This document shows, one piece after another, positions 3,932 through 61,100 of a stretch of 64,000 bases of DNA. Each line of letters begins with the position of its first letter. The first letter of the stretch is position 1. Made by a program: the position numbers and the translations under genes. The notes under the pieces are model-generated. The model saw only the letters and a program-made list of their open reading frames with translations, was not told the DNA's origin and did no database searches. The DNA is taken from NCBI GenBank assembly GCA_961205875.1, contig OY540810.1:31682001-31746000 (forward strand), written 5' to 3'. Source of the stretch: Sialis fuliginosa. Taxonomy: Eukaryota; Arthropoda; Insecta; Megaloptera; Sialidae.

Positions 3932-3960
3932 TCCTTAATATATATAAAGCTCAACGTCTC

Positions 3961-3994
<34 letters not shown>

Positions 3995-4823
3995 CGTTAG
4001 TTGCCTTATCACTCGAGAACCACTTATCCGATTTACGAGTTTTTTTTTTTAATTCATAGGTACGTTCTCTGGCCAGGTTATAGGCTATATTTTTTTACGT
4101 TAGGTAACATAACAACAAAGCAGTGACGATAATAGTAAATCAAGTCGGAAAAAATTTTGCCGTCGGCGCGCTGTTTTGTAATACGCTGCCTAAACCGTTC
4201 AATATAGAACAAAATAATGTATTAAAGAATTGTGTAGAATCAAAAGTTCTACAATTAAGTCAGCGACACGATATGTCTAACTTTTATATTTAAGCCACAA
4301 TAACTGCTTTTATGTTACAAAAAAAACATAAAATATTTGGGTTTTGTTTACATGGACTTATGACCTGCAAAACATTAATCCTTATCGAAATAAATGATTT
4401 CATCGTCATAAGTACTTAATGTAGATATAGTTTGCCATTTACAGCATCCAATTTGGTCGTATAGTTTAGAAAATATCTTAAAATATATTTATAAAGGTAA
4501 CATTTTAAATGTATGGTGTCGTGCCGCATCGAAGCGATGTACATCAGACTGGATTCGCTTACGTTCGGTAGATATTCGGAGTCCCTCGGCTGACGTTTGA
4601 GTTAATTTTGTTTTCAATAATTAACATTTAAATTTAAACAGAACACAAATTATTTGAATTTTTTTCTTCTGATTCGTTTTTGTTAGGTAATTTAGGTATT
4701 GATAAATTATTATTACAATAATAACTAATCGTGTTTGTACTTAATTAATTAAACTATATTTTTCAAAAATCCTAAACAATAATTCCGTAGTCTACGCGAG
4801 CGAAGCCGCGTGGGCCCAGCTAG
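3932..4823 (+). mobile_element. Non-autonomous Helitron, array unit 1
   Basis: This 892-bp unit starts with TCCTTAATATATATAAAGC and ends with CTAG. Before the end is a 3' hairpin with stem ACGCG/CGCGT around AGCGAAGC, followed by GGGCCCAG. TC at the 5' end, a short hairpin about 10 bases before CTRR, and a host A before the element are standard Helitron hallmarks. Near the 5' end is a (TCTG)8 run. There is no Rep/helicase coding capacity, so it would depend on enzymes made elsewhere. It abuts unit 2 directly. Confidence 0.88.
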
Positions 4824-4852
4824 TCCTTAATATATATAAAGCTCAACGTCTC

Positions 4853-4894
<42 letters not shown>

Positions 4895-5723
4895 CGTTAG
4901 TTACCTTATCACTCGAGAACCACTTATCCGATTTACGAGTTTTTTTTTTTAATTCATAGGTACGTTCTCTGGCCAGGTTATAGGCTATATTTTTTTACGT
5001 TAGGTAACATAACAACAAAGCAGTGACGATAATAGTAAATCAAGTCGGAAAAAATTTTGCCGTCGGCGCGCTGTTTTGTAATACGCTGCCTAAACCGTTC
5101 AATATAGAACAAAATAATGTATTAAAGAATTGTGTAGAATCAAAAGTTCTACAATTAAGTCAGCGACACGATATGTCTAACTTTTATATTTAAGCCACAA
5201 TAACTGCTTTTATGTTACAAAAAAAACATAAAATATTTGGGTTTTGTTTACATGGACTTATGACCTGCAAAACATTAATCCTTATCGAAATAAATGATTT
5301 CATCGTCATAAGTACTTAATGTAGATATAGTTTGCCATTTACAGCATCCAATTTGGTCGTATAGTTTAGAAAATATCTTAAAATATATTTATAAAGGTAA
5401 CATTTTAAATGTATGGTGTCGTGCCGCATCGAAGCGATGTACATCAGACTGGATTCGCTTACGTTCGGTAGATATTCGGAGTCCCTCGGCTAACGTTTGA
5501 GTTAATTTTGTTTTCAATAATTAACATTTAAATTTAAACAGAACACAAATTATTTGTACTTTTTTCTTCTGATTCGTTTTTGTTAGGTAATTTAGGTATT
5601 GATAAATTATTATTACAATAATAACTAATCGTGTTTGTACTTAATTAATTAAACTATATTTTTCAAAAATCCTAAACAATAATTCCGTAGTCTACGCGAG
5701 CGAAGCCGCGTGGGCCCAGCTAG
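4824..5723 (+). mobile_element. Non-autonomous Helitron, array unit 2
   Basis: This 900-bp unit is almost identical to unit 1. I could see about four substitutions, and the 8-bp length difference is explained by (TCTG)10 instead of (TCTG)8. The junction with unit 1 reads CAGCTAG|TCCTTAATA with no extra base, which is an exact end-to-start join. It has the same 3' hairpin and CTAG terminus. Confidence 0.88.
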
Positions 5724-6609
5724 TCCTTAATATATATAAAGCTTAACGTCTCTCTGTCTGTCTGTCTGTCTGTCTGTCTGTCCGTTAGTTACCTTATCAC
5801 TCGAGAACCACTTATCCGATTTACGTGTTTTTTTTTTTAATTCATAGGTACGTTCTCTGGCCAGGTTATAGGCTATATTTTTTTACGTTAGGTAACATAA
5901 CAACTAAGCAGTGACGATAATAGTAAATCAAGTCGGAAAAAATTTTGCCGTCGGCGCGCTGTTTTGTAATACGCTGCCTAAACCGTTCAATATAGAACAA
6001 AATAATGTATTAAAGAATTGTGCAGAATCAAAAGTTCTACAATTAAGTCCGGGACACCATATGTATGTCTAACTTTTATATTTAAGCCACAATTACTGCT
6101 TTTATGTTACTAAGAAAACATAAAATATTTGGGTTCTGTTTACGTGGACTTATGACATGCAAAACATTAATCCTTATCGAAATAAATGATTTCATCGTCA
6201 TAAGTACTTAATGTAGATATAATTTGCCATTTACAGCATCCAATTTGATCGTATAGTTTAGAAAATATCGAAATATATGTTATACGGGAAAATATTATTC
6301 GTGCGATGGTGTATGGCGATGGAACGTACCAACTAGAAGCGCAGGGCAGAGGGAAGGGAACAGGCCGGTATTCTTTTGATTGTCAATTGTTTATTTTGTT
6401 TTCAATAATTAACTTTTAAATTTAAATAGAACAAAAATTATTTATACTTTTTTTCTGATTCGTTTTTGTTAGGTAGGTAATTTAAGTGTTATTTGGTTTT
6501 TATTACATTAATAACTAATCGTGTTTGTAATTAATTCAACTATATATTTTTTAAATCCTAAACAATAATTCCGTAGTTCACGCGAGCGAAGCCGCGTGGG
6601 CCCAGCTAG
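5724..6609 (+). mobile_element. Non-autonomous Helitron, array unit 3
   Basis: This 886-bp unit has the same termini and 3' hairpin, and (TCTG)7. It is more diverged than units 1 and 2. A stretch at about 6266-6390 is replaced by unrelated sequence. It starts exactly after the CTAG of unit 2 and ends in CTAG followed by host T at 6610. The whole array therefore sits in a single A|T target. Confidence 0.87.
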
Positions 6610-6639
6610 TAGGGAACTAATTTTAAGCCATTTTTTCAA

Positions 6640-15020: not shown

Positions 15021-15238
15021 TGATGACTTTAATGGCACTCTGGTATTCTACGTAACTGAATGTAACACACTTATTATTATTATTAGACAATGTTTTTATT
15101 GTAAATATTATAAAGTTCTATAAACAGACTACATTTAATTTTTCTCAAGCTCAATCACTTGTTTTGTCAACAAGTGACTTCAGTCCTACCAACTTCTTTA
15201 AACATAGATAATATAGTATTACATTTTTTTTATCAACA
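15021..15238 (-). repeat. Copia 3' LTR
   Basis: 218 bp. On the element strand it begins TGTTGATAAAAAAAATGTAA and ends in CA. By eye it is identical to the copy at 19126-19343. Confidence 0.93.
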
Positions 15239-15247
15239 CTTCCCCTT
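15239..15247 (-). other. Copia polypurine tract
   Basis: On the element strand the bases just before the 3' LTR read AAGGGGAAG. This is the expected purine-rich primer site for plus-strand synthesis. Confidence 0.75.
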
Positions 15248-15266
15248 AATACTATATTTCTTACAT

Positions 15267-18200
15267 TTAACAAACCTTTAAACCTATAGTTTCTCTATTA
15301 TAACAAAATACATCTCTACTTAAAGATTTAGTAAACATATCTGCCTTCTGTTCTGTGGAAGGGATATGTTCTATTACTATATCACCCTTTTGAACAATAT
15401 CTCTAATAAAGTGATGCTTTATATCTATGTGTTTAACTCTTTTACATTCTTTGTTCTTTGCGATATGAATACAACTTCTATTGTCTTCAAAGACTAACAC
15501 ATATTTATAATTTAAGCTTAAATCATTCAATAAACCCTTAAACCATAGAGATTCTGACACTAATGAACTAAGTGCCACGTATTCTGCCTCTGCAGTTGAA
15601 AGAGATACAGTTTTCTGTTTTCTAGTAGCCCACACAGCTATATTACCATATAAAAATAGACAAAAACCTGTAACACTCTTTCTATCTATACAATCTGCCG
15701 CCCAATCAGAATCTGTATAACCCGTTACATCATGTTGTTCTTGATTTATATTTGTATAACATAAACCTAATTCTTTAGTATATTGTAAATATCTTAATAA
15801 TCTTTTCAAATAATTCCAATGTGTATTATTTGCGCACTCTTGAAAACGACTAAACAAATTTACAGCATAGCTTAAATCTGGTCGTGTACCCATTACTAAA
15901 TACATTAAACACCCAATAAGTTCTCGATAGGGATATTTAGTTAACTGTTCAACATCTGTTTCTTTTTCAAGTTTTAAACCCCTTTCTACTGGAGTGGCAA
16001 TACCATTGCAATCATTCATATTAAATCTTTTTAGCAATTTCTTAATAAAACATTTTTGATGCACTTTTAAAATGTTATTCTTAAAGTCTCTTTCTATCTC
16101 TAAACCTAAAAACTTTTTCACTGGTCCTAGGCTAACCATTTCAAATTCGGACTTTAACTTCTTTTGAAAAACACTTATTACATCCTTATCACTGTTAAAT
16201 ATTAATATGTCATCGACATATAGGAACACATAAAAACTTGAATCATTATTTCTTGTATAAAGACATGTATCATGCATTGAACTCTCAAAACCATTTTCAG
16301 TCATAAATTTATGAAATACTTCATTCCAACATCTTGGACTCTGTTTCAAACCGTACAATGATTTATTAAGTTTACATACATATTTATCACTCTTCATATC
16401 TTCTGGTAAGTACATGTAGATTTCTTCTTGTAATGTTCCATGTAAGAATGCTGTTTTTACATCCATTTGTTCTATTTCTAAATTTTGTTTGTTTGCTATT
16501 ATTAGCAGTGTTCGTAACGTTGACAGTTTTCCCACTGGCGCATAAGTTTCACTCCACTCACTTGTTTCGTAACCTTTAGCTACCAGTCTTGCTTTGTATA
16601 TTCTATCTTCTTTCTTAGTGAAAACCCAACGACTATTTATTACTTTCTTATCATCTGGCTTTTTCACCTTCGTCCATGTTTTATGTTTTTCATGTGACTT
16701 CAATTCTTCTTCTATCGCATTTATCCATTGTTCTTTTTCATTTGATTCTAATGCTTCTTTCTTAGTTCTTGGTAAATTATAACCTGATGACTTTAATATA
16801 TTTTCTACATTAAAAGCTGAAAACTCACATTCATAGAAATCATCACATTCAAAATCTTGTAAATAAATTGGTTTCTTTCTGATTCTTTTTTCTCTTTGTT
16901 TTATTTCTTCTGTATTTTCTGATTCTATTTCTTCTCTATTCTGTTCTTCGTTTGTAACCTTATTTGTATTTTGTTCTAATGAATCTTGAATTTCTTGATC
17001 TATATAAACAATTTCTTTTGATTTATTTCCTTCATTAAATATCACATCTCGTGCTTTAACAACATTATTTCTGTCTGCATCCCATAATCTATAACCATTA
17101 TCACAATATCCAATCATGTATAATTTCTTTGATTTCTCTGACAGTTTACTGTCCCTTTTTTCTTTGTTTATATATGTATATGCTTCTGATCCAAAAACTT
17201 TAAATTTCTTGTAATCCGGTATCTTTCCATACCACAATTCTGCAGGTATTTTCTTATTCACAGTTGGTAATCTGTTTATTATGTATGTCGATATGTACAC
17301 TGCCTCTCCCCACATACCCTTTTTAAATTCTGTATCGGCCAACAACGTTCTTGCTTTTTCTATTATTGTTCTATTTAGCCTTTCCGCTTTTCCATTCTGT
17401 TGAGGCGTGTATGTTATTGTTGTTTCTATTTGTATTCCTTTTTTGTTGCAATATTCTTGAAACGCATTGTTTATGTATTCTGTACCGTTGTCACATCGAA
17501 ATCTGGATATTCTATTACTAAACTTTGCTTCTACCATTTCTGTATATTTTTTAAAACAATTTAATACTTCCGTTTTGCTTTCTAGTAGATAGACAATAGT
17601 AAAGTGACTATAATCGTCTAAGAATGTTAACATATATCTTTTGTTATCATATGTCACTGGATTTATTGGTCCACACAGATCAGAGTGTATTAATTCTAGT
17701 ATTCTTTCAGTACGCTGACACTCTTTGCTTTCAAATGGTAGTCTCGTTTGTCGACCTTTGATACACGGTTCACATATTATTTCTAGTTCAGATGTCTCAT
17801 CGTTTATTAACCTTCTTTTCTTTAGTTCCTTAACTTTTTCCATTGACGCATGACCTAGTCTTCTATGCCAAATTCTATTTTCTGGTACCGAATATGCTTT
17901 CTGTGCAGATATTTCAACTTTAACAAACTCCATTTCGTATAAACAATTTCTTCTATATCCTTCTTTAATTACCATTCTATCTTTATAAATCGTAACCTTG
18001 TTGTTTTCAAATTTCACTCCAAAACCAGCCTGTTCAATCCGGTTTATTGACAGTAAATTGCTTCTAAGTTCAGGTACATACAGTACGTTTACTAATTTAC
18101 ACTCCTTTGTTATTATTGTTCCAATCTTGAGTGCCATTAAAGATTCCTCTTTCTTAGCAATATTTATCTTTATAGGATTCTTTAAATTTATAAACTGGTG

Positions 18201-19121
18201 AAAATGTTCATCAGTATTTATTAAATGGTCTGAAGCACCAGAATCTGCATAAAAATAAATTGACTGACCTTTATTGTTTTCTAAATTTTTATCACCACCA
18301 ACATTGAAACATATTCCATTCTTTTCGGATTCTGTATTATTGGCTTCCTTTTGAGTAAAGTTATTCTTCTTATACTTCGAAGGTCTAAATTTACATTCTG
18401 ATTTCTTGTGTCCTTTCTTTCCACAATTGTAGCATTCAAAATTAAAAATTTTCTTTTCTGTATTACTACTTCTATTTGTTCTATTCCAAAAGGCTTGCGA
18501 ATTTTCTGCTTCATTTCCTTTTAACCCTTTTCTTTTTATTTCTTCTTCGATCAATCTATTTTTGACGAATTCTAGCGTGAGTTCATTGTTGATTGTTTCA
18601 ATTGCTGTGACGACATTATCGAACGAGCTTGGCATCGCCAGCAACAAATAACAAATAATCTCACTTTCTCCGGGTTTCGCATCAGATCCTTTTAATTCTC
18701 TGACTAGTTTGTCAAACTTTAGAAAAAATACATCAAGCAATTCTTCTTCTTTATATTTCATTGTTAACAATTTCTTTCTCAACAATAACTGAGAAGCGAT
18801 ACCTTTACGTTGGTACATATATGTTAATTTCTGAATTATTTCTCTTGCTGTGTCACATTCCTTTATTATTTCTAGGTGACTGTCCGCTATACACTGTACG
18901 AGGACATTCTTCGCTTTTGTATTCTTCTTCTTTTGATCGTCTGTTAATTCTTCAATTTCCTCATACGATTCTTCCATTGTCTCTAACAATTCTATTTCTT
19001 CCAAAATAAGTTTAACCCTGTACACCCAGTTCCCAAACTCCGAACCGTTGAACGGCGAGACGCCGTACTTATTAATTCTGTATTCCGTTTCCATTTTTCT
19101 ACTCGGCGAGTCTGGGCCCAT
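15267..19121 (-). CDS. Copia gag-pol polyprotein (1,284 aa)
   Basis: Single frame with all expected domains in Copia order. A Gag region is followed by the zinc knuckle C230-X2-C-X4-H-X4-C243. The aspartic protease has DSGAS at D293. The integrase has HHCC residues H419, H424, C450, C453 and catalytic D481, D544, E580 (DD35E). Reverse transcriptase has YVDD at 968-971. RNase H has TDSD near 1137 and STAEAE near 1178. Integrase before reverse transcriptase places it in Ty1/Copia, not Gypsy. Nothing catalytic appears lost. The first ATG lies inside the primer-binding site. A second ATG (codon 10) may be the real start, because conserved Gag sequence begins just after it. Confidence 0.95.
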   Translation of the reverse strand: MGPDSPSRKMETEYRINKYGVSPFNGSEFGNWVYRVKLILEEIELLETMEESYEEIEELTDDQKKKNTKAKNVLVQCIADSHLEIIKECDTAREIIQKLTYMYQRKGIASQLLLRKKLLTMKYKEEELLDVFFLKFDKLVRELKGSDAKPGESEIICYLLLAMPSSFDNVVTAIETINNELTLEFVKNRLIEEEIKRKGLKGNEAENSQAFWNRTNRSSNTEKKIFNFECYNCGKKGHKKSECKFRPSKYKKNNFTQKEANNTESEKNGICFNVGGDKNLENNKGQSIYFYADSGASDHLINTDEHFHQFINLKNPIKINIAKKEESLMALKIGTIITKECKLVNVLYVPELRSNLLSINRIEQAGFGVKFENNKVTIYKDRMVIKEGYRRNCLYEMEFVKVEISAQKAYSVPENRIWHRRLGHASMEKVKELKKRRLINDETSELEIICEPCIKGRQTRLPFESKECQRTERILELIHSDLCGPINPVTYDNKRYMLTFLDDYSHFTIVYLLESKTEVLNCFKKYTEMVEAKFSNRISRFRCDNGTEYINNAFQEYCNKKGIQIETTITYTPQQNGKAERLNRTIIEKARTLLADTEFKKGMWGEAVYISTYIINRLPTVNKKIPAELWYGKIPDYKKFKVFGSEAYTYINKEKRDSKLSEKSKKLYMIGYCDNGYRLWDADRNNVVKARDVIFNEGNKSKEIVYIDQEIQDSLEQNTNKVTNEEQNREEIESENTEEIKQREKRIRKKPIYLQDFECDDFYECEFSAFNVENILKSSGYNLPRTKKEALESNEKEQWINAIEEELKSHEKHKTWTKVKKPDDKKVINSRWVFTKKEDRIYKARLVAKGYETSEWSETYAPVGKLSTLRTLLIIANKQNLEIEQMDVKTAFLHGTLQEEIYMYLPEDMKSDKYVCKLNKSLYGLKQSPRCWNEVFHKFMTENGFESSMHDTCLYTRNNDSSFYVFLYVDDILIFNSDKDVISVFQKKLKSEFEMVSLGPVKKFLGLEIERDFKNNILKVHQKCFIKKLLKRFNMNDCNGIATPVERGLKLEKETDVEQLTKYPYRELIGCLMYLVMGTRPDLSYAVNLFSRFQECANNTHWNYLKRLLRYLQYTKELGLCYTNINQEQHDVTGYTDSDWAADCIDRKSVTGFCLFLYGNIAVWATRKQKTVSLSTAEAEYVALSSLVSESLWFKGLLNDLSLNYKYVLVFEDNRSCIHIAKNKECKRVKHIDIKHHFIRDIVQKGDIVIEHIPSTEQKADMFTKSLSRDVFCYNRETIGLKVC

Positions 19122-19125
19122 AACC
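19112..19125 (-). other. Copia primer-binding site for initiator-Met tRNA fragment
   Basis: Directly after the 5' LTR the element strand reads GGTTATGGGCCCAG. This is complementary to the anticodon-loop region CTGGGCCCATAACC of eukaryotic initiator methionine tRNA. Priming from an internal tRNA fragment instead of the 3' end is the known Drosophila copia mode. The first ATG of the polyprotein frame lies within this site. Confidence 0.8.
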
Positions 19126-19343
19126 TGATGACTTTAATGGCACTCTGGTATTCTACGTAACTGAATGTAACACACTTATTATTATTATTAGACAATGTTT
19201 TTATTGTAAATATTATAAAGTTCTATAAACAGACTACATTTAATTTTTCTCAAGCTCAATCACTTGTTTTGTCAACAAGTGACTTCAGTCCTACCAACTT
19301 CTTTAAACATAGATAATATAGTATTACATTTTTTTTATCAACA
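19126..19343 (-). repeat. Copia 5' LTR
   Basis: 218 bp, by eye identical to 15021-15238. It is followed outward by the AATAG duplication. It should contain the promoter. I did not find an unambiguous TATA box to single out in this AT-rich sequence. Confidence 0.93.
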
Positions 19344-46842: not shown

Positions 46843-49430
46843 TCAATGACTATCCATAAACTGTAGTTCCGAAAGAAGGAGAAGTGTATTTGGTAACGGC
46901 CTAGGTTGCGGTGATAAAACTGTCATTGTTTGTCTATCTGGATCTATATTCGTTCTGAAAAATGATAATTACAATTTTTAATCATAGAAATTAAATATTT
47001 ATACCTAAAACAGTGTTCATTTCCGAATATAATATTGAGTGACTTAATACTATTTTTAATACACCAAGCATTTCTGATAAAATTTTAATAGTATCTCATT
47101 TTGTGTAGTTAGAGATTTTATATGTTAGAATATAAGTATTCAACAAAACATATAATAACTTACACACAAACAAATCCCGCAAGGTTAGTCTGTATAACAT
47201 CTTCATCCGGACTTTCAGCGAAACTGACTGCAAGTATATGATGTAAAATAGCTGGCCCCGGTTGTACAGGTACCAATTTTAGTAAGTTGTCTTCGGCTTT
47301 CATACCGAGTGGCATACACGAATCGGGTAAAGGAGGAGCTCCGGTTTTGTATATCCGTGTTTCTGACCATTTCACATCAAACGAATGTGGATACAGCGGC
47401 GTTTTGCCTCCATAGAAATATTCTCTAATGCGTGCGTCACGGGCCTCCACACGAATGCTTTTCGTCCTTTCTACTACCTGTATTAAAAATATTGTTAAAC
47501 TGATGCAACAAGAAAAGTAATTTTTAATTTTGATATGTATTTAGCATATATATTTCCTACCATATTTCTAAAAATTTCTTCACGCAAAAATTCTTTCTAG
47601 AGAATATATATATTGACAAGATTTTCAATGTTGCAATAAATAATTTAATTTTATTTAGAAAATTATAATTTTAAAACCTAGGATTTTACTTTAATTTTCA
47701 AAAATTTTGTGGATTTTAATTTGAAAAACAGTCAACACTATATGAAGCATTACCAAATGCAGTCATCGGAAGATTTCAATTTGGTTTTTTATTGTCATCG
47801 TATTTATGTTATGATTTAATTGAGTATTACATAAATCTATATACAATAGTAATATAAAGAGATGAATAATAATAATCTTAAAAACTACTCAATTGATTTG
47901 GATAATTCACACTGCTAGAAAGTTAATTTTTTCCAGTGTGACATAGACTATATTTTATCATTAAGAAAAATGTATCATTAATATTTTCACAGAAAAATTA
48001 AAAGTTAATCAATGATAGTTGACTTTGATATAATAAAACCAAAAATGTATATTGAATAATTATATATTATTATATTAGGTCATGTACATATTTAACATAA
48101 AACAATTGATATTTTTAATAAGATTTGATTTTGAAATCGAAGCCACAGGGAACTGCTAGTTCTTTAATGTTTTTCATAAAGTTTACAATATACTATTTAA
48201 AAATAAAAACTTACTCCTCCGCTTTTTGGTAGAAACACGACTTTGACAAAAGATGGCATATCTCGTACTAATTCATTGTAAAGTCTCTCTTGATCCAAAA
48301 CGAGGATTACATCAACTTCAAAAGCTTGAGCGGAATGTAAAAGTTGTTTATATCCAGCACCTTTTATCCAACCGCAGGTATTAATAACTACTCCAGACAT
48401 TTTTGCTGAAAAACAGTACAGTTTTATTGACAAATAAGTAATCATTTATAAATTTATAAATCGTCCTTAAAATGAAATATTGATTTAATTTATAACCTTT
48501 ACATCATGTATAACATAATAAATAAACTAACCTTTTTTATTTGCTTGCATTCTGTCTTGTATAACTTCAGCTAATCGACTGATAAGTGTATTATAGAGAG
48601 TAACATTTACTTGAGGTGAGTTATGCCCAAAATGAAATACAAGAGGAGCTTCCTGTGAGAATCCTTCTTCAATAGCAGCTGGGCGTTCGACTAACAAAGC
48701 TCCTATAAAAAAATACAAATTGTAAAATACCATAAAGATCATCTTCAATATGTTAACACAAACCTATAGTGCCTGGAATTGATATCTGACCCTGACCAAC
48801 ATCTAAATCTACTAAAATAGGCCGTCGACCACTTCTAACAGCATAATTGAGTAATAACCGACATAACGTAGATTTACCTACATCACAAGGACCAACAACC
48901 ATTGTTATTGGACCTCGACCACCAGTTTGATCAGCAATCACTCGAAGTTGTTCTAAAGCTGCATGGCAATTCAAGTACATTAACTACAAGAACAAATATA
49001 TTAATAAAATTTAAGTATTATTATATGTATTACTGTATACTAACATACCATAGGTGTTTCTTTTGCAACATAACTAACATCTGTTTTTCCACGAAGTTCA
49101 ACTGTACATCCTTGCCAGGTAAAGACGGCAACTTTTGCACCTGCACTGAATTCATATATTTTTCCTTTGACTATTTCTGTACCGAATATTTCAGCATGGC
49201 CAGTTTTAAGCTATAATATACAATAATATATAAATTGCAATTCTATATTTTAATTATAGTTTAAATTTAGTAAAATATAAAAACAACAAAAAGTTATAGA
49301 ATTTAATAAAAAAAGTATATATAACCTCCAAAATAACTTTTTCATTTTTCGTTTCCACTTCAAATCTTAATTCTGTATCTGGTTCTAATTTAAATTCTTG
49401 GACAGGTGCTAATTTTGTATCATCGGCCAT
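46843..49430 (-). CDS. CLP1: Polyribonucleotide 5'-hydroxyl-kinase CLP1 (424 aa)
   Basis: CLP1 phosphorylates RNA 5'-OH ends in the nucleus and is a subunit of pre-mRNA cleavage factor II and of the tRNA splicing endonuclease complex (insect name cbc). Seven exons, 5' to 3': 49430-49326, 49210-49049, 48983-48764, 48702-48532, 48405-48215, 47477-47164 and 46954-46843. All junction phases agree. The N-terminal domain (1-89) starts MADDTKLAP. The P-loop is GPCDVGKST at 120-128, where the common form has T in place of C. A Walker-B-like [15 protein letters not shown] follows. [18 protein letters not shown] and LPKSGGVVER are family signatures, and the C-terminus has [11 protein letters not shown]. 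Length matches animal CLP1 (about 425). A TIR transposon begins 146 bp upstream of the ATG. Confidence 0.96.
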
Positions 49431-49884
49431 CGTAATGATTAATTAAACTGCAATTGAAGAAACTTTAAAAATATTATAAAACATATAGATGACACTGTTG
49501 ACACAGATCTCAATTAAATCAAATGTCAAACAGTATTCCACAGCACAGAATAAAGATACTCCAGAAGCGACACTCATGCCCGGTATTATAAAGAAATTGC
49601 ATGGGTGCAAATTCGCGTCTGCGCACATTAGCTGTCAAATAACGCTATCAATTGGGTATTAAATTGGTACGAAATTGCTCGATATTTTAAAGCAGTGGTA
49701 ATAAATAGACACATAATAATGTAATCGATGCATGTACATTATATGGGTTTACATAAATGTGTATTTTAAGTCTGTGATGTGTTTATACATATTGCCCATA
49801 TTGCATTTAAATTGACACATAACCTAAGTATACGATATTAATGTACAAAAATATAACGTGTTGTGGTAAAAATTGAAAATTAAA

Positions 49885-50205
49885 ATGCCGGTAAGTAGTA
49901 AATATACTTTTATATAACACATTCATATATATCATAGCTCTTTAAAGCAATTCCTGCATTTGGAATTTTTTACAAAACGCTTGAAGATGAAAAACATTGT
50001 TTACTTTTAATTGTCACATAAAATTTATTTTTATATTATACTTTTATAATATATAGTATTTATCTCAACTTTTTGTATATTACAGAAACGTTTCAAAATG
50101 TCATCAATTTCATCTGTATCATCTGGACATTTTATATCACATGAATATTCAGTATTATTTTCAGATAACTTTGAAAATAACATTCAAATACCAAGAGAAC
50201 CTTAG
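49885..50205 (+). CDS. Possible small spliced frame in the TIR element
   Basis: ATGCCG is followed at once by GTAAGTAG. An acceptor TATTACAG at about 50085 leads into AAACGTTTCAAAATGTCA. The joined frame encodes about 41 residues, starting MPKRFKMSS and ending at a stop near 50205. A different frame continues with basic residues, so a frameshift is possible. No domain. Could be the decayed start of a transposon gene. Confidence 0.3.
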
Positions 50206-50743
50206 GTGTTCATAGAAGAAATGATCCAATCCTAATGATTGAAAAAAAGATTAAAAAATGAGCATCAGAAGGTGGCTGGGAAATGATAGATGTTCGAAAA
50301 GTGGTATAAGTATACGGTAAGAAGCGAATTTACAAGCGTCATAAGGTGGTTTGGATACAGCAGAAGCTGATCAAAAAGCAGCATTATGTATATAAAGGAA
50401 TCGAGAGCAGTGGAGAAGATATTCAGCCGTATTCATAGTTCCTCCTTGTTACTAAATTTACGTTTCATAAAACTTCCTTGACTACGAAGGCTTCCTTATC
50501 TCAAGGTTGATCGGAAGCTTTCTTAAGGCAGCTTTGAATACAATTTTAACTGTAATGCTGACAATGTGTATATAAACATAACATAACATAAAAGTAGTTA
50601 CACATTTCAATCTGTAGCTTTGTGCTGTCATTATTTTTTTAGACAAAGCGAATAAAGGAAAAAAAAGATAATGGACAATAAATTTAAAAAAAACACTTTA
50701 TTTATAAACTAAACATTATTAATAACATAACACTAGTAAGTTA

Positions 50744-51545
50744 CTAAAAAGTCCTAAAATATTCATTACTTCTAGAAGGAAACCTTGAGATCTGTCTATG
50801 AAACAAGGGCGCCTTGGATATCTGTGATAGCCTTGATCGAGGTTTTCTCCGACCTTGCGATAAGGAACGATTATGATTACGGCTGATTGGAGATGAGAGT
50901 ACTTGAGATAAAACATAAGTATATTGCGATGCTCTGTTTTGTAAATCAATCTGAAAATAAATGTATAATATTGATTAAAATGTTTTTATTATTGCAATGT
51001 TATGATTGGTCTTACAAATATTATTTCGTTGTCACTGCTTTTCTCTAATAAGGCATCTGAAATAAAGAAAAATTAAATTAATTGATATTTTAATTATATA
51101 TAAATGATAAAAAATTACCAAAAAACAAACCGAAAGATGCACAGCTACCAACAGGATTTTGTAGCTCCCTAGTTTTATTTCCAATTGTATGTAAAAAAAA
51201 TTCGTCTTATAAAATCTATATTTTTTTTAATGCATCTATAAAATTAATTCAATTAGTAATTTGTTAGTAAAACTTATTTTATAATAATTAATTACCTTCT
51301 CATCCGCACAATCTTTCTTGGCTTTTTTTTTAATACTTTCGTGAAGATTTTTTAATTGAATACCATTACGTAGTTGGCCTGTCTTTGTAATATTATTGAA
51401 CTCGCTAGCTATTTCATTCCACGTTTGATTTTTTTAATTTGTAGTTACTAAATCGGTTGTCTTATTTTCGATAATATCTATGCATTTTAACACCGCTTAT
51501 CATTATCACACTGTATCCTTTTTCTCTCATTTTAATTTCTTTTTA
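50744..51545 (-). pseudogene. SANT/Myb-like DNA-binding protein gene of the TIR element
   Basis: Exon-like segments on the minus strand. About 51481-51296 encodes CIDIIENKTTDLVTTN, then a stop, then NQTWNEIASEFN and QLRNGIQLKNLHESIKKKAK. This is the Myb/SANT-like fold of FSBP/zeste-type proteins, and the donor GTAATT follows. Further segments join in phase: about 51191-51131 (weak acceptor), 51056-51016 and 50950-50744. The last encodes a 68-residue arginine/serine-rich tail ending at TAG. The in-frame stop and the doubtful acceptor argue for decay. Such proteins are found in Harbinger elements and as domesticated host regulators. Confidence 0.6.
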
Positions 51546-51884
51546 TATACTTAAATAAACTCTTCATCAAAATAAGTACTTATTATAGTATTTTGATTTA
51601 GTTGTTTATCATAATAAAGAAATGTCAAATTGAATAGTTTCCTTTTAGTGACATTGACTAGAAGTCTATTTTTTCTGTATATCACAAAATCACAACAGCT
51701 TTTAAGACTGCTGATTTCTACTTAATAACACGCATGCGTGAAAGTCATAATATCTACGATTTCATTGGCTACATCTTTGCGTGATTGTCATTTACATTTA
51801 ATACCCAGTAGATAGCGTTATTTGACAGCTAATGTGCGCAGGCGCGAATTTGCACCCATGCAATTTCTTTATAATACCGGGCAT

Positions 51885-52580
51885 CAAACTGGCAATCGTT
51901 TTTACATACACTCTATGGGTATTATGACGTCATCTGACGTTTGGAGTTGACACGTTTGATTGGTCAACCAAAGTAATATTTCAACCAATCATTTTAAAGT
52001 ATCTTTCCTCTGATTGGTTGAATATTACATCATAATATTTAAATTTCATATTAGCACACCCAAAGCATGCTATGCTTTGCAGTGTGGTTTTACTCTCGTC
52101 CCATTTTTTTTTCGTATGAAATTTGATAAAACGAGCATTATATATTAAATTTCTTCAGTAACCCCCTTACATGTTTACATTTTATAAATGAGAACATTAC
52201 AGTCTCCGTATTCACTTAATTTAATATCGATTGGTTTTAATTTTCTGTAATAAAAATATAAACAAAGTTCAATTTGTCGTTTTTGGCCCGTTTTTACACC
52301 TTGTCAACAAACTGCAGCTCGCAATACGTAATAAATTAACACAAAACCTTTTGAAATCGCTTCATCTATTTGCAGAATAGAACCCTATTAAAACTCAACC
52401 AAATCGGATAACTAGAAGTAAGGAAATTTGCAGTTTATTTACATCATTTTGCTTATTTTAACGAATTTCGGAATGATCGAGGTAGTTCGATAAATATCCA
52501 TAGCGAGCGCCACTGAAGTTACTTCATTGTATGTTTTGTGATTACTTCATCTGTCATATTATACTTATTATTATAATTTA
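51885..52580. other. Intergenic DNA, no gene seen
   Basis: Contains repeated GATTGGTTGAA/TTGATTGGTCAA words near 51955-52025 in both orientations, which look like a small inverted repeat. Ends at the A (52580) before the Helitron-like pair. Confidence 0.45.
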
Positions 52581-53350
52581 TCACACTATAATATAAACCA
52601 AAACGTATATATATTTGTTTGTATATCTGTCCGGCGACAATCAATTTATAGCCCGTTAAACCTTTCACTGGATTTTTTTCATACTTTGCCTGTTTTTAGA
52701 TTCGTCCTTTATACAGTGTAATGGATAATTATTTTATTCAAAATATTTATATTTTCCGTGATATGTATTTTTATGCGAGACACTACATGTAAAATTTACA
52801 CGAAATTTTGCTATCTGACGTTTAGTTTGAAATTTAAGAGTTTCGACACTCGGCTTTTGTTTTTGGAATTCTTAGAATTTCGTCGCTGTGATTGGTCAAA
52901 AATTGACATTTCGTATGAATTTTAAACACTCCACGTGGACTTGATATTTGCCTGTCATAAACAGCTGTTTTTTATTTGAAATACGTCAGGGGCGTGTACA
53001 GAAATGTGTCAAATTGGTACATTCCAATTAAATTGTATATAAATGAAAATTTTAACCAAAATTGGTTGGTGTATTGATCTAATTAGTATAATAATTTATA
53101 TTTAATATCAAAACGTTTATATTTAATAAGAATTACGTCAGGAGCGTGGTTACAAGAATATTTTTTATTGATTTTTTCTGATATAATTGTATTAAAATGA
53201 AACGGTTATTTTAGAGATTTGGTTGTTGTGGGGATTGATGTAATTTGCCCAAAAATTTATATTTATTAACCATTAAGTCAGGTGTGCAATGTAAAAAAGA
53301 TTTTAAATTGTTAATTTTTAAGAGTTAATAATACACATTTTTGAAAATCA

Positions 53351-53664
53351 TTTGGTGGTTCAAAGATATATGTAATGTATCGAACAATTTATATTAAATA
53401 ATAATAAAGACAGGGCTGGAGTATTAAAGGGAAACACCAGATATGTTGGACAGGTGCTAATTTTGTATCATCGGCCATCGTAATGATTAATTAAACTGCA
53501 ATTGAAAAAACTTTAAAAATATTATAAAACATATAGATGACACTGTTGACACAGATCTCAATTAAATTTGGTGGTTCAAAGATATATGTAATGTATCGAA
53601 CAATTTATATTAAATAATAATAAAGACAGGGCTGGAGTATTAAAGGGAAACACCAGATATGTTG
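53351..53664 (+). repeat. 98-bp direct repeat bracketing a CLP1-derived insert
   Basis: The block starting TTTGGTGGTTCAAAGATATA is present at 53351-53448 and 53567-53664, and the two copies look identical. Copy 2 of the Helitron has this block only once (about 55108-55196). The duplication therefore arose together with the filler between the two blocks. Confidence 0.85.
53446..53567 (+). pseudogene. CLP1: Captured copy of CLP1 start region
   Basis: 122 bp matching 49398-49519 with a single visible mismatch (GAAAAAAC for GAAGAAAC). It covers the first 11 codons of CLP1, the ATG and about 89 bp upstream, in the same plus-strand orientation as the source. It cannot encode a protein, as it is only a fragment of exon 1 and the 5' flank. 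The near identity shows recent capture. Confidence 0.9.
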
Positions 53665-54353
53665 AAAATTTAATGATTTTTGCGATTTTTTAAATTTATT
53701 TAATAAATTCCTTTAGTATTGTCAGTGGAACCGCATTAAAAAATATTTAAAATTGCTATTTTTTAATCGTGACGAAAAAAATTGAACAAAAGTTAACAGC
53801 TTGAGACATTTATAAAAATAATAAATATGTTAAAGTCAGGGTCGTGGTCTTGAAAATTTTTTTTTGCTATTTTTTCATAAAATTGCGTAAACATAAAACA
53901 AAAATCGTAATAAGATAATTTAACCTAATAAATAACATCGAAAATGCTTCAACGCATTCTTTGAATATGTTGTATGCCAAAAAATGTGGAAAATGATATT
54001 CACAATGATTTTTTGGTAATTTCTCAAAGGCATTATTAATATTAATGGTAAAGGTATAAATTACGAGGGTCGCAGCCGAAGGCTGAGACCCGAGTACGTT
54101 CTGATGTTAGGGTGATTTGTACATGTAAATTGTAATATTACTGGAAAGGTAATAATGATAAATGATTATCCCCGCCAAATTCAGGAATTATTTACTTATC
54201 AGCATTTAAAACAACTACATTGAAATATTTTATGAAAATTTGATATGACAAAAGTTAATATAAAATAATAATTTTTATTTTATCAATCAATATTTTATTA
54301 AATGTGGCACGATTTGGGGTTGGGGCGCGTAGCGCCCAGGGGCAAAGCCCCTA

Positions 54354-55803
54354 TCCCTCTATTATATAAACCGTGAGTATATTTATATATATATTTGTAT
54401 GTCTGTCCGGAAGCAATCAATTTATAGCCCGTTAAACCGTTCACTGGATTTTTTTCATACTTTGCCTGTTTTTAGATTCGTCCTTTATGCAGTTAACAGG
54501 CTTATATTCTTATGCAAAACTAGAATAGTTTCTGTGCTGTGTATTTTTTTCCGAGAAACGACATGTAAAATTGGCACAAAATTTTGCTTTCTGACGTTTA
54601 ATTTGAAATTTAGCAGTTTCGACACTAGGCTTTTGTTTGTGAAATTCTTAGAATTTCGTCGCTGTGATTGGTTGAAAATGGGCATTTAGTATGAATTTTA
54701 AACACTCCACGTGGACTTGATATTTGCCTGTCATAAACAGCTGTTTTTTATTTGAAATACGTCAGGGGCGTGTACATAAATGTGTCAAATTGGTACATTA
54801 CAATTAAATTGTTTATAAATGAAAATTTTCACCAAAATTGGTTAGTATATTGATGTAATTAGTATAATAATTTATATTTAATAAGAATTACGTCAGGAGC
54901 GTGGTAACAAGAACATTTTTTATTGCTTTTTTTGATATAATTGTATTAAAATGAAAAAGTTATATTAGTCATTGGAGATTGATGTAATTTGCCCAAAAAT
55001 TAATATTTATTAACAATTAAGTCAGGTGCGGCGTAGTAAAAAATATTTTAAATGGTTATTTTTTAAGAGTTGTATAATAAACAATTTTGAAAATCATTTA
55101 ATAGTTCAAATATATAATGTATCAAACAATTTATACTAAATAATAATAAAGACAGGGGTGGAGTATTAAGGGGAAACAGCAATGAGATATGTTGAAAAAT
55201 TGATTTTTTTGCGATTTTTTTAATTTATTTAATAAATTCTTTTAGTATTGTCAGTGGCATCGCATTATAAAATATTTAACATTGCTATTTTTTAATTGTG
55301 ACGAAAAAAAATTGATTTGATTGAAATTGAACAAAAGTTAAAAACTTAAGAAATTTATAAAAATAATAAATAAGTCAAAGTCAGGAGTGTGGTCTTGAAA
55401 ATTACTTCAACGCATTCTTTGAATATGTTGTATGCAAAAAAATATGGAAATTGATATTCACAATGATTTTTTGGTAATTTCTTAAAGGTATTATCAAAAT
55501 TAAAGGCATAAATTATGATGTATACGAGGGTCGCAGCCGAAGGCTGAGACCCGAGTACGTCTGAGGTTAGGGTGATTTGTACATGTAAATAGTAACATTA
55601 CTGGAAATGTAATAATGATAAATGATTATCACAGCCAAATTCAAGAATTATTTACTTATCAGCATTTAAAACAATTACAGTGAAATATTTTATGAAAATT
55701 TGATAAGACAAAAGTTAATATAAAAAAATAATTTATATTTTATCAATCAAATGTGGCGCGATAAGGGGTTGGGGCGCGAAGCGCCCAGGGGCAAAGCCCC
55801 TAG
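54354..55803 (+). mobile_element. Helitron-like element, copy 2
   Basis: Starts TCCCTCTATTATATAAACC immediately after CTA of copy 1. Ends with hairpin GGGCGCGAAGCGCCC, then GGGGCAAAGCCCCTAG, followed by T. 1,450 bp, non-coding. It shares TCGCAGCCGAAGGCTGAGAC and most other blocks with copy 1. A degenerate relative is at 62870-63081. Confidence 0.78.
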
Positions 55804-58170: not shown

Positions 58171-61100
58171 ATGTTATATTTTCTGTTAAAAATAATTATT
58201 GGAGTTTTCGTGATTCTTGTGTTGAATTATGTTTGGAAAAGAAGACATTTTTATTTACTGGCTTCAAGAATTCCAGGAATATCTATCGGGTTTATCTTTG
58301 TTAATATATTGAAGAATTTTGGAAGTGAAAAAAACATAGGTAAATATTGTCAATTTTTTTCAAGGTAATATTAAAATACGATTTTAAAAATGATTTTCTC
58401 GAATATAATTGCTTTTACAAGTATTAAAAAGGAATATAATTTAATCATGTTAATTTTTTGTGATATCCTAACTTAAAAGGGCAAAATTTACAATTCTTTG
58501 AAACTTTTAAAACTATAAAATATGTCTCATATCTAATATAATATGTCTCATTCTAAAACTATTACAAAGCTTATCGTATCTTCGATATTGTAAGGAAGCA
58601 AAAAAAAATTGTCACGCAATACTTTTTATAAAAACATTTTTCCATGGTAAATTAATAAATTTATTTTCAGACTTTATAAAAATAGCAGACGATATAAAAG
58701 ATGCTATGAATGTGAATAGAACGCCCAAGAAATTGTGGCTAGGCACAAATCTCTTTGTGTATTTGATAAATCCAGAAGATATAAAGATTGTTTCTAATTC
58801 TTTTGATTGTATAGATAAATCTCCACTACTTTATGGAGCTTTAAAAGACATGATTCACAATTCTATTATAGTGAAACCAGGTATGTTATACATGAATTTC
58901 TCTTATCAATTAAATGATTATATATTATACACTCATCCAAACAATTAAAGGAACAAGAATTTAAACATTTTTTTTGGGTGTTTTTTAAAGTGCTGTATCT
59001 TTGTGAAAAATGGTCGTATCGAAATAAAACAAAAAGCATTTTAAAGCTTCAAGTTTCTAGTTTTGAGATTTTTTAGCATAATTTTTTTTGAGTTACGGTT
59101 ATCGCGCAATCAAAAGAAATAGTGCGACACAAAAATTTTCCAATTTTTTACATTTTTTTAAAGGGTCCGCGGGCTTGGGAAATTTTTTTTCAGTTAAACC
59201 AATGCATTGGTCAGTTAACTTGCTTATTCAGCTTTAATTTGTTTTTTTTTTGGTCTCTCTCTTAATTTTTTTGCCGAGATATCTGACTTTAAATGAAAAA
59301 TGATTCTTTTGTCTTCGATCATCAATATATCAGCAACTAATGATTAAACAGTAAATTTAAGGGCAGTTTTAAAAACTTGAATAAATTTCCTACAAGACCC
59401 TTTCATGACTTTATTAGAAAAAATTTTTTTTTACCCTCACCATTAGTTTGAAAAAGTCCAAAAAAGTGACCTTTTATGTTCTTTTAGTAAATCTATCGCT
59501 ACTTTACAAATATTGATGGAAATACTAATGTTGCCAGGTAGTTTTGCAGCTTAATATACCCCCAACAGTCCTGTAAATTTTGAAATTGATCCATCGAACC
59601 GTTTTTCCTGACCGATTGATCAAAGTTTTACAAAACAATTAAAGGAACAGACTGTGTAACAGACTGGAACATAACATTGTGTAATCATCATCAAAATGAA
59701 AAAAACGATTTTCGATTTTTGATTTTTTTTACAGTTTTGCATTAGTTACCTGTTATGTTTGAAATGGAGAAAAAAAATTACAAAAAATTAAAAAAATAAT
59801 TTTTTTTTAAATTTTGAATTTTTTTTTCAAAATTTTTAAAACATTTCAAGAAACAATACTGACTCATTTTTGACACGATTCGGCTTTTGCGTACCATAAT
59901 TTTACTCATCTTGAATTAATTGCATCAATTAATTCTTTCGCAGCGGGAACCGTACGAAATTATAAAATAATTTTGTCTCGCATGCTGGAATCGAATTAAT
60001 ACGCAAGCAAAATTTGATCAATCGGTCAGGAAAAACGGTTCGATGGATCAATTTCAAAATTTACAGGGCTGTTGGGGGTACATTAAGCTGTAAAATCACC
60101 TGGCAACATTAATCTTCCCATCAATATTTGTAAAGTAGCGATAGATTTACTAAAATAACATAAAAGGTCATTTTTTTGTACTTTTTCACACTAATGGTGA
60201 GGGTAAAAAAAATTTTTTTTCTAATAAAGTCATGAAAGGGTCTTGTAGGAAATTTATTCAAGTTTTTAAAACTGCCCTTAAATTTACTGTTTAATCATTA
60301 GTTGCTGATATATTGATGATCGAAGACAAAAGAATCATTTTTCATTTAAAGTCAGATATCTCGGCAAAAAAAAATTGAGAGAGACCAAAAAAAAAACAAA
60401 TTAAAGCTGAATAAGCAAGTTAACTGACCAATGCATTGGTTTAACTGAAAAAAAATTTCCCGAGCCCGCGGACCCTTTAAAAAAATGTAAAAAATTGGAA
60501 AATTTTTGTGTCGCACTATTTCTTTTGATTGCGCGATAACCGTAACTCAAAAAAAATTATGCTAAAAAATCTCAAAACTAGAAACTTGAAGCTTTAAAAT
60601 GCTTTTTGTTTTATTTCGATACGACCATTTTTCACAAAGATACAGCACTTTAAAAAACACCCAAAAAAAATGTTTAAATTCTTGTTCCTTTAATTCTTTG
60701 GATGAGTGTACAAGCTGACCCATTTTAAATGTCCACAACTTTTAACTTTTTTATGGAGAGGTTCTATCGAAAAATATTTCTGACAAAAGTTACACGGTTT
60801 AGAGGAGGACATCGATGTCCTGTGGTTAATTTTTTAAGGTGGCAATTTCAAGGTCATTTTTAGGATTCCGTTGAAAACTAGGAACCCTTTTAGTTTCACT
60901 CTGTCCGTCTGTCTATATAAGTTTTATACTGATAAAGGTGGAATTTAGTATACAGAAATGATAAGATTTTTGGACCCCCTTCCCATGGACTGAAAAGTAT
61001 ATTAAAAAAAAACTCATTTAATCCATTAAATCGGATGTCTTTAGAATGGTCTCCTAAAATGCAACAAATTTTTTTAATTTTAACCCTTCAGTCACGAATT

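What the first reader, a model, noticed from the sequence alone, without database searches (positions are those of the whole stretch)
53351..53664. Helitron-like element carrying a fresh copy of the neighbouring CLP1 start region, bracketed by a self-duplication
A 122-bp piece of CLP1 (first 11 codons, ATG and 5' flank, from 49398-49519) is inserted in the Helitron about 4 kb away with one visible mismatch. It lies between two identical 98-bp copies of Helitron sequence. The sister Helitron has that block once and no insert. The structure fits template switching: synthesis jumped to CLP1, copied 122 bp, then jumped back and recopied 98 bp. Short shared bases at the joints (TTG and AAAT/TTT) support this. 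It is a snapshot of how Helitrons pick up gene pieces.
Basis: seen in the sequence. Interest (0 to 1): 0.85.

Follow-up and report, generated by a model that had tools for sequence, protein, structure and literature searches.

The report
Local repair scar inside a Helitron
A young jumping element has had a 117-base piece of a neighbouring gene pasted into it, most likely when the cell copied the wrong nearby template while mending DNA; it is a clear, recent example of a known kind of repair scar and perhaps an early stage of gene capture, not proof that the element grabs genes itself.

Summary
A Helitron copy (52581-54353) carries 117 unambiguous bp (122 with joint overlaps) of the start of CLP1, 121/122 identical to 49398-49519, between two identical 99-bp copies of Helitron sequence. 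In the 392-Mb genome the CLP1 piece was found at two places only: CLP1 and here. The block stands once, without insert, in 56 contiguous placements in 48 of 56 sequences held. The host copy is young (5 private substitutions in 1520 bp).

The donor lies 4 kb away in the same orientation, the insert is single-copy, and the joints share 3 and 2 bp. The best reading is an in-situ repair accident: synthesis switched to CLP1 and came back 99 bp behind its departure point. This is the topology called a cycle of templated insertion in cancer genomes, and it resembles the transposition-independent gap-filling reported for Pack-TIR elements. Nothing shows that Helitron transposition did it. A 4-kb tandem duplication followed by a 3.8-kb deletion would give the same sequence. 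It is a good unmobilised specimen for the filler-DNA model of Helitron capture, but of a known kind. Interest is moderate.

The parts
52581..54353 (+). host Helitron copy (non-autonomous), carrying the CLP1 piece; 5' TC after A at 52580; 3' end CCCCTA, lacking the final G of the family's CTAG
   Evidence: termini read beside family copies and checked
53350..53448 (+). first copy of the 99-bp Helitron block
   Evidence: identical to 53566-53664; block once in 56 contiguous placements in 48 of 56 sequences held
53449..53565 (-). unambiguous CLP1-derived insert (with the TTG overlap: 11 codons, ATG and 5' flank; antisense to the Helitron as written)
53446..53448 (.). 3-bp overlap TTG at the first joint
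   Evidence: sequence, alignment limits
53566..53567 (.). 2-bp overlap AT at the second joint
   Evidence: sequence, alignment limits
53566..53664 (+). second copy of the 99-bp Helitron block
49398..49519 (-). donor: first 11 codons of CLP1 (ATG at 49430-49428) and 89 bp upstream of the ATG
   Evidence: Clp1 domain at 47160-47540 minus
54354..55803 (+). second Helitron, more distant relative, abutting head-to-tail; block once, no insert; complete CTAG end
49575..51885 (.). element with 89-bp terminal inverted repeats lying between donor and insert (PIF/Harbinger-like by TIR and TCA flanks, judged by eye and from recall)
   Evidence: inverted repeat 49576-49664 / 51796-51884, 97%

Best explanation
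A Helitron copy that had already landed about 3 to 4 kb from CLP1 suffered a break or stalled fork inside it. A 3' end ending ...TTG at 53448 (or its equivalent on the other strand) paired with TTG in CLP1, copied 117 bp of it, then let go and re-paired by AT at 53350, 99 bp behind where it had left. The block was therefore made twice with CLP1 between. Shown: the structure, the donor, that no other copy with the change was found, that it is recent, and that the donor is local to the present site. Inferred: that it was one event, that it was templated synthesis (theta-type end joining at a break with long 3' overhangs, or microhomology-mediated replication switching), that it came after integration, and that the Helitron's own machinery was not involved.
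For: The donor is 4048 bp away in the same orientation; a random donor within 4 kb either side has a chance of about 8 kb/392 Mb = 2e-5 (hand arithmetic from the genome size). The insert was found in 2 of 2 candidate places genome-wide, itself and CLP1. Block without insert: 56 contiguous placements in 48 of 56 sequences held, one of them the window's second Helitron; the 18 partial matches hold no second case. The nearest full-length relatives, L024 (13/1518 differences) and L044 (13/1473, sharing a 15-bp deletion with the host), have the block once. Host private substitutions against 44 aligned copies: 5 in 1520 bp, so 0/99 and 1/122 differences fit an event no older than this copy. The joints overlap by 3 and 2 bp. 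[quoted passage not shown]
Against: The microhomology is only marginally more than chance (P 0.029 for one joint at least 3 and the other at least 2 bp; 0.060 for a sum of at least 5). A 117-bp templated insert and a 99-bp overhang are, from memory, long for theta-mediated joining. Sequence alone cannot separate this from a two-step origin. No orthologous empty allele was available (no relatives held), so 'after integration' rests on the locality of the donor, not on an observed intermediate. The 44 aligned copies were picked as unbroken matches to the pre-event model, so they could not have shown the insert; the absence claim rests.
Confidence: 0.72

Rival explanations
1. Two ordinary steps: first a tandem duplication of 49398-53448 (joint TTG), then a deletion of 49520-53349 in the second copy (joint AT). 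The product is letter-for-letter the same as the one-event template switch.
For: The geometry fits exactly (coordinates); tandem duplications and microhomology deletions are common in general (recall). A deletion joining two tandem Helitron copies is the simplest reading of L059 copy a.
Against: It needs two independent events whose second breakpoints happen to leave only 122 + 99 bp of a 4-kb duplicate; no trace of the intermediate was seen in the window.
Confidence: 0.14
2. Transposition-coupled capture: while this Helitron was integrating here, its replication or strand-transfer intermediate switched to target-proximal DNA (CLP1) and back.
For: The insert, the duplication and the copy itself could be of the same age (5/1520 private substitutions against 0/99 and 1/122). 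A possible source of enzymes exists: Helitron_like_N domains, the two best in open frames of 1675 and 1660 aa. The filler-DNA model is invoked for insect Helitrons with 2-13 bp end junctions (PMC6544945, passages), and PMC8277862 states that template switching is commonly observed in Helitron-mediated duplication (passages).
Against: No other copy was found with it; the donor is upstream of the 5' end, so 3' read-through cannot explain it; nothing specific to Helitron enzymes marks the joints.
Confidence: 0.09
3. A small chimeric DNA circle (Helitron block plus CLP1 piece, about 216 bp) integrated by homologous recombination at the block.
For: Integration of such a circle would give block-CLP1-block (inference from the anatomy).
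Against: It needs a two-segment circle to form first and a crossover within 99 bp; more steps than the other models.
Confidence: 0.02
4. Assembly artefact.
For: No reads could be inspected; the family is multi-copy.
Against: The assembly is contiguous (392 Mb in 20 contigs); the insert is CLP1 sequence that carries its own mismatch, and the joints have exact short overlaps.
Confidence: 0.03

Closest known systems
Cycles of templated insertion (human cancer genomes, PMC7025897)
   Same: A copied piece from elsewhere is inserted, and the host locus is rereplicated at the return point, so the insert is flanked by a duplication (passages).
   Different: Here in a reference assembly (germline presumed), very small (117 bp and 99 bp), donor 4 kb away, inside a transposon.
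Tandem duplication with in-cis templated insert at breaks with 3' overhangs (PMC5730883)
   Same: Duplication of the overhang region, microhomology, insert templated in cis (passages).
   Different: Those overhangs were 46 nt, made by nickases in mouse ES cells, and the inserts are reported for theta-made duplications in NHEJ-deficient lines; here 99 bp and natural.
Single-copy Pack-TIR gap-filling (PMC8277862)
   Same: Piece of a nearby locus inside a DNA transposon; of 281 unique Pack-TIRs 160 (56.9%) within 15 kb of the parent, the majority of these under 5 kb; microhomology median 2 bp; breakpoints skewed to the interior (passages).
   Different: Helitron, not a TIR element; here no transposon sequence is lost, instead 99 bp is duplicated.
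Filler-DNA model of Helitron gene capture (PMC6544945)
   Same: Internal capture in an insect Helitron with short shared end junctions (2-13 bp) (passages).
   Different: Those captures define amplified exemplars; here a single copy, with its donor still 4 kb away.

Membership tests
Helitron (rolling-circle transposon) | 5' end TC, 3' end CTRR, insertion between A and T (criteria from recall) | tested here: met
   Of 62 listed 5' ends, 41 show a TC-type start, after A in 31 and after G in 10 (mostly head-to-tail arrays); in 21 no such start was matched. Of 43 listed 3' ends, 41 have CTAG followed by T. The host 5' end is A|TC; its 3' end is CCCCTA|TC, lacking the last G.
Helitron (rolling-circle transposon) | no target-site duplication | not tested
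   No empty sites were compared.
Helitron (rolling-circle transposon) | hairpin near the 3' end | tested here: met
   GGGCGCGTAGCGCCC exact in 38 and GGGGCAAAGCCCC exact in 37 of 43 listed 3' ends; the latter occurs exactly at 2 sites in the window, 0.09 expected with up to 2 mismatches.
Helitron (rolling-circle transposon) | autonomous RepHel partner in the genome | tested here: inconclusive
   PF14214 Helitron_like_N: 30 matches, the two best in open frames of 1675 and 1660 aa. That they mobilise this family was not tested.
Helitron gene capture (filler-DNA model) | internal host piece with short shared bases at both joints | tested here: met
   TTG and AT; weakly beyond chance.
Helitron gene capture (filler-DNA model) | captured piece mobilised with the element | tested here: not met
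   Insert in 2 of 2 candidate places: CLP1 and this copy.
Helitron end-bypass (3' read-through) capture | captured DNA lies beyond the 3' end | tested here: not met
   The insert is internal and its donor is upstream of the 5' end.
Cycle of templated insertion | copied segment inserted with a rereplicated host segment at the return point | tested here: met
   99/99 block copies flank the insert; block once in 56 contiguous placements in 48 of 56 sequences held.
Cycle of templated insertion | single event | not testable with these tools
   Needs haplotypes or a sister species; the genome tool offers no relatives of G000.
Transposition-independent gap-filling | same element without the insert at the orthologous site in an outgroup | not testable with these tools
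   No relatives of G000 are held.

The most novel reading that the evidence does not exclude
Helitrons capture host DNA from the neighbourhood of their target at the moment of integration: the integrating strand primes on nearby target DNA and returns with a short back-step, so captures begin as local, single-copy fillers bracketed by a duplicated piece of the element. This locus would be the first-step intermediate, caught before mobilisation.
Probability: 0.09. Interest if true: 0.65.

Novelty: new member of a known kind. Interest (0 to 1): 0.38.

Why it matters
Captured gene pieces in Helitrons are mostly studied after amplification, when donor, joints and order of events are blurred. Here donor, joints and recipient are all present, nearly unmutated and in cis, and close relatives show the prior state of the element. 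That makes the order 'local repair first, mobilisation later' testable with population or sister-species data, and it extends the Pack-TIR gap-filling picture to a Helitron.

Tried and rejected
Rejected as further instances of the same event: (1) L059 copy a looked like a second case (67-bp Helitron repeat around a 266-bp filler), but the filler starts at the exact joint of a 669-bp transposon in the tandem neighbour (99.2% identical), so a single deletion joining a transposon-bearing copy to an empty copy explains it. (2) L024 carries about 100 bp near its 5' end resembling its left flank, but at 93.75% and also 88% in inverse, as part of a palindromic repeat, so not a fresh local copy. (3) L055 and L060 inserts look like ordinary transposons (inverted ends in both; about 10-bp flanking repeat in L055, by eye). 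(4) Repeats at window 27675, L038 and L045 are tandem units or include inverted repeats, without a traced filler; the 34-bp repeats in L036 and L065 (same offset in both) and the window repeats at 3932-5724 were not followed. (5) The window pair 25882/29666 is 94% identical; its first 57-85 bp also match many places (40 scored of 1098 candidates), while the whole 141 bp matched only these two places among those scored.

A selection effect found on re-reading: the 44 copies aligned were chosen as single unbroken matches to the pre-event model, so a copy with the insert would have been left out; they serve for dating, not for absence. Dating the event more finely was not possible: 0/99 and 1/122 differences fit any time since the copy arose. 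Which side of the CLP1 mismatch changed is unknown. One attempt at a chromosome end printed only N in its first 400 bases, and none of six telomere-type words occurred in 1000 bases.

Literature: 9 of 10 searches used. In those listings I noticed no report of this locus or of a Helitron capture with a flanking rereplicated block, but I read only passages of 7 papers (PMC6544945; PMC13317346; PMC8277862; PMC8355091; PMC5730883; PMC4289320; PMC7025897). The rice study on patch-mediated tandem duplications is known to me only through citations in those papers (not held).

Full report
Observation. The window stretch 53351-53664 was compared with the whole window. Positions 53446-53567 match 49398-49519 on the same strand at 121 of 122 bases; the mismatch is 49459 G against 53507 A. 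Positions 53350-53448 and 53566-53664 are identical over 99 bases. The joints share TTG (3 bp) and AT (2 bp), leaving 117 unambiguous inserted bases (53449-53565). The donor is the beginning of CLP1: read on the minus strand from 49430 it gives [37 protein letters not shown] (the exon end was not tested), and the Clp1 Pfam domain lies further along the same strand (47160-47540, E 1.8e-20). The insert reads [11 protein letters not shown] and then runs into Helitron letters.

What the host is. The window lies in a 392-Mb genome of 20 contigs that could be searched. Searches with the element's two halves scored 40 of 234 and 40 of 402 candidates, so copy numbers are lower bounds; 52 loci were taken out and compared. 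Of 62 listed 5' ends, 41 show a TC-type start, after A in 31 and after G in 10; of 43 listed 3' ends, 41 have CTAG followed by T, with two short hairpins before it in most. This is the Helitron pattern (criteria from recall). The host copy spans 52581-54353; its 3' end reads CCCCTA and is followed directly by the TC of a second, more distant Helitron (54354-55803). The genome also holds Helitron_like_N domains, the two best in open frames of 1675 and 1660 residues, so a possible source of enzymes exists; whether it moves this family is not known.

Private and recent. A genome-wide search with the 117-bp insert at E up to 10 found two candidate places and scored both: the insert itself and CLP1 (the tool skips very common words). 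A query made of 100 bp on the left, the 98-bp block and 100 bp on the right finds 74 matches in the 56 sequences held. Fifty-six of them, in 48 sequences, are contiguous and 271-302 bp long, that is with the block once and nothing inserted; one of these is the window's second Helitron. The other 18 are partial: two are the host itself, two are L055 (interrupted by a transposon), five are copies with deletions (L045, L046, L047, L049, L069), three lie at locus edges (L028, L042, L075) and six are short or diverged (L029, L030, L037, L052, L065, L068). Forty-four other near-full-length copies were aligned for dating; they were picked as unbroken matches, so they say nothing on absence. The host has 5 private substitutions in 1520 bp; its nearest relatives in that set differ at 13 of 1518 (L024) and 13 of 1473 (L044) positions. 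With that rate, 0 differences between block copies and 1 between insert and CLP1 fit an origin at any time since this copy arose; they do not date it within that span.

Why in situ. The donor is 4048 bp from the insert in the same orientation. If capture had happened elsewhere before this copy moved here, landing within 4 kb of the donor would have a chance of about 2 in 100,000 (hand arithmetic from the genome size). The capture therefore most likely took place at this site, during or after integration. It was not end-bypass: the insert is internal and the donor lies upstream of the 5' end.

Mechanism. One template-switching event explains all letters: synthesis leaves the element after 53448, copies CLP1 from 49398 to 49519, and re-enters the element at 53350, re-copying 99 bp. 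In end-joining terms, a break with 3' overhangs of about 99 nt is joined with a templated insert; [quoted passage not shown] Overlaps of at least 3 bp at one joint and 2 bp at the other have a simulated chance of 0.029, and a summed overlap of at least 5 has 0.060, so microhomology is consistent but weak support. A two-step route, tandem duplication of 49398-53448 followed by deletion of 49520-53349, gives the same sequence and cannot be excluded here.

Is it Helitron biology? The evidence does not show that. In animals, captures in TIR elements are mostly local (160 of 281 unique Pack-TIRs within 15 kb of the parent, most of these under 5 kb), have median 2 bp of microhomology, and the single-copy ones are attributed mostly to transposition-independent gap filling; the same paper says that template switching is also commonly observed for Helitrons (PMC8277862, passages). 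The present case matches that pattern in a Helitron, with the difference that 99 bp is gained instead of a gap. For insect Helitrons the filler-DNA model has been argued from amplified captures with 2-13 bp junctions (PMC6544945, passages). A scan of 232,752 bases held (56 sequences, enriched for this family) for exact direct repeats of at least 30 bp within 1.5 kb found repeats in 7 sequences (L024, L036, L038, L045, L059, L065 and the window). Besides the host only L059 has a traced filler, and it is better explained by a deletion within a tandem Helitron array. The sample is biased and too small to say whether Helitrons are prone to such events.

Verdict. It is best filed as a recent, local, templated-insertion repair scar inside a Helitron: a candidate first step of gene capture by the filler-DNA route, so far not found mobilised. 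It is a new member of a known kind.

Noticed in passing
one search list of 5' ends (62 rows), recounted: 14 of 62 listed 5' ends sit directly behind another copy's CCCCTAG (head-to-tail), and several pairs are head-to-head (by eye); the A|T at a resident Helitron's 5' border may be a favoured target, or arrays form by failed termination.
   Followed up: partly
54353-54354: The host Helitron ends CCCCTA without the final G and is followed at once by TCCCTC of the next element; other arrays read CTAG|TC.
   Followed up: no
L059 (whole): Tandem Helitron pair sharing the left joint of a 669-bp dispersed transposon; copy a holds only its first 266 bp and then an empty-site Helitron from 67 bp upstream: probably a deletion within an array of transposon-bearing and empty copies.
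   Followed up: yes
L029, minus-strand copy, consensus position about 1309: A (TTAGG)n run of 31 bp has grown inside a Helitron copy, apparently at a resident GTTAGGG motif (by eye); telomere-type repeat by recall.
   Followed up: no
15021-19343: Copia-like LTR element with a single 1288-residue open frame and identical 218-bp flanking repeats, 15021-15238 and 19126-19343, so very recent; type judged from the translation by eye.
   Followed up: no
49575-51885: Element with 89-bp, 97% inverted repeats and TCA on both sides (PIF/Harbinger-like by eye) between CLP1 and the Helitron; without it, donor and insert would be about 1.7 kb apart.
   Followed up: no
53062-55063 and similar in the family: The Helitron body holds degenerate internal repeats of roughly 130-160 bp around a GTCAGG-GCGTGG motif (families D3, D5, D8).
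   Followed up: no
3932-6610: Tandem duplication with about 892-900 bp offset, 92% identical over 1.8 kb.
   Followed up: no
58925-60713: Inverted repeat of about 705 bp, 96.9% identical, arms about 380 bp apart, near P450 pieces.
   Followed up: no
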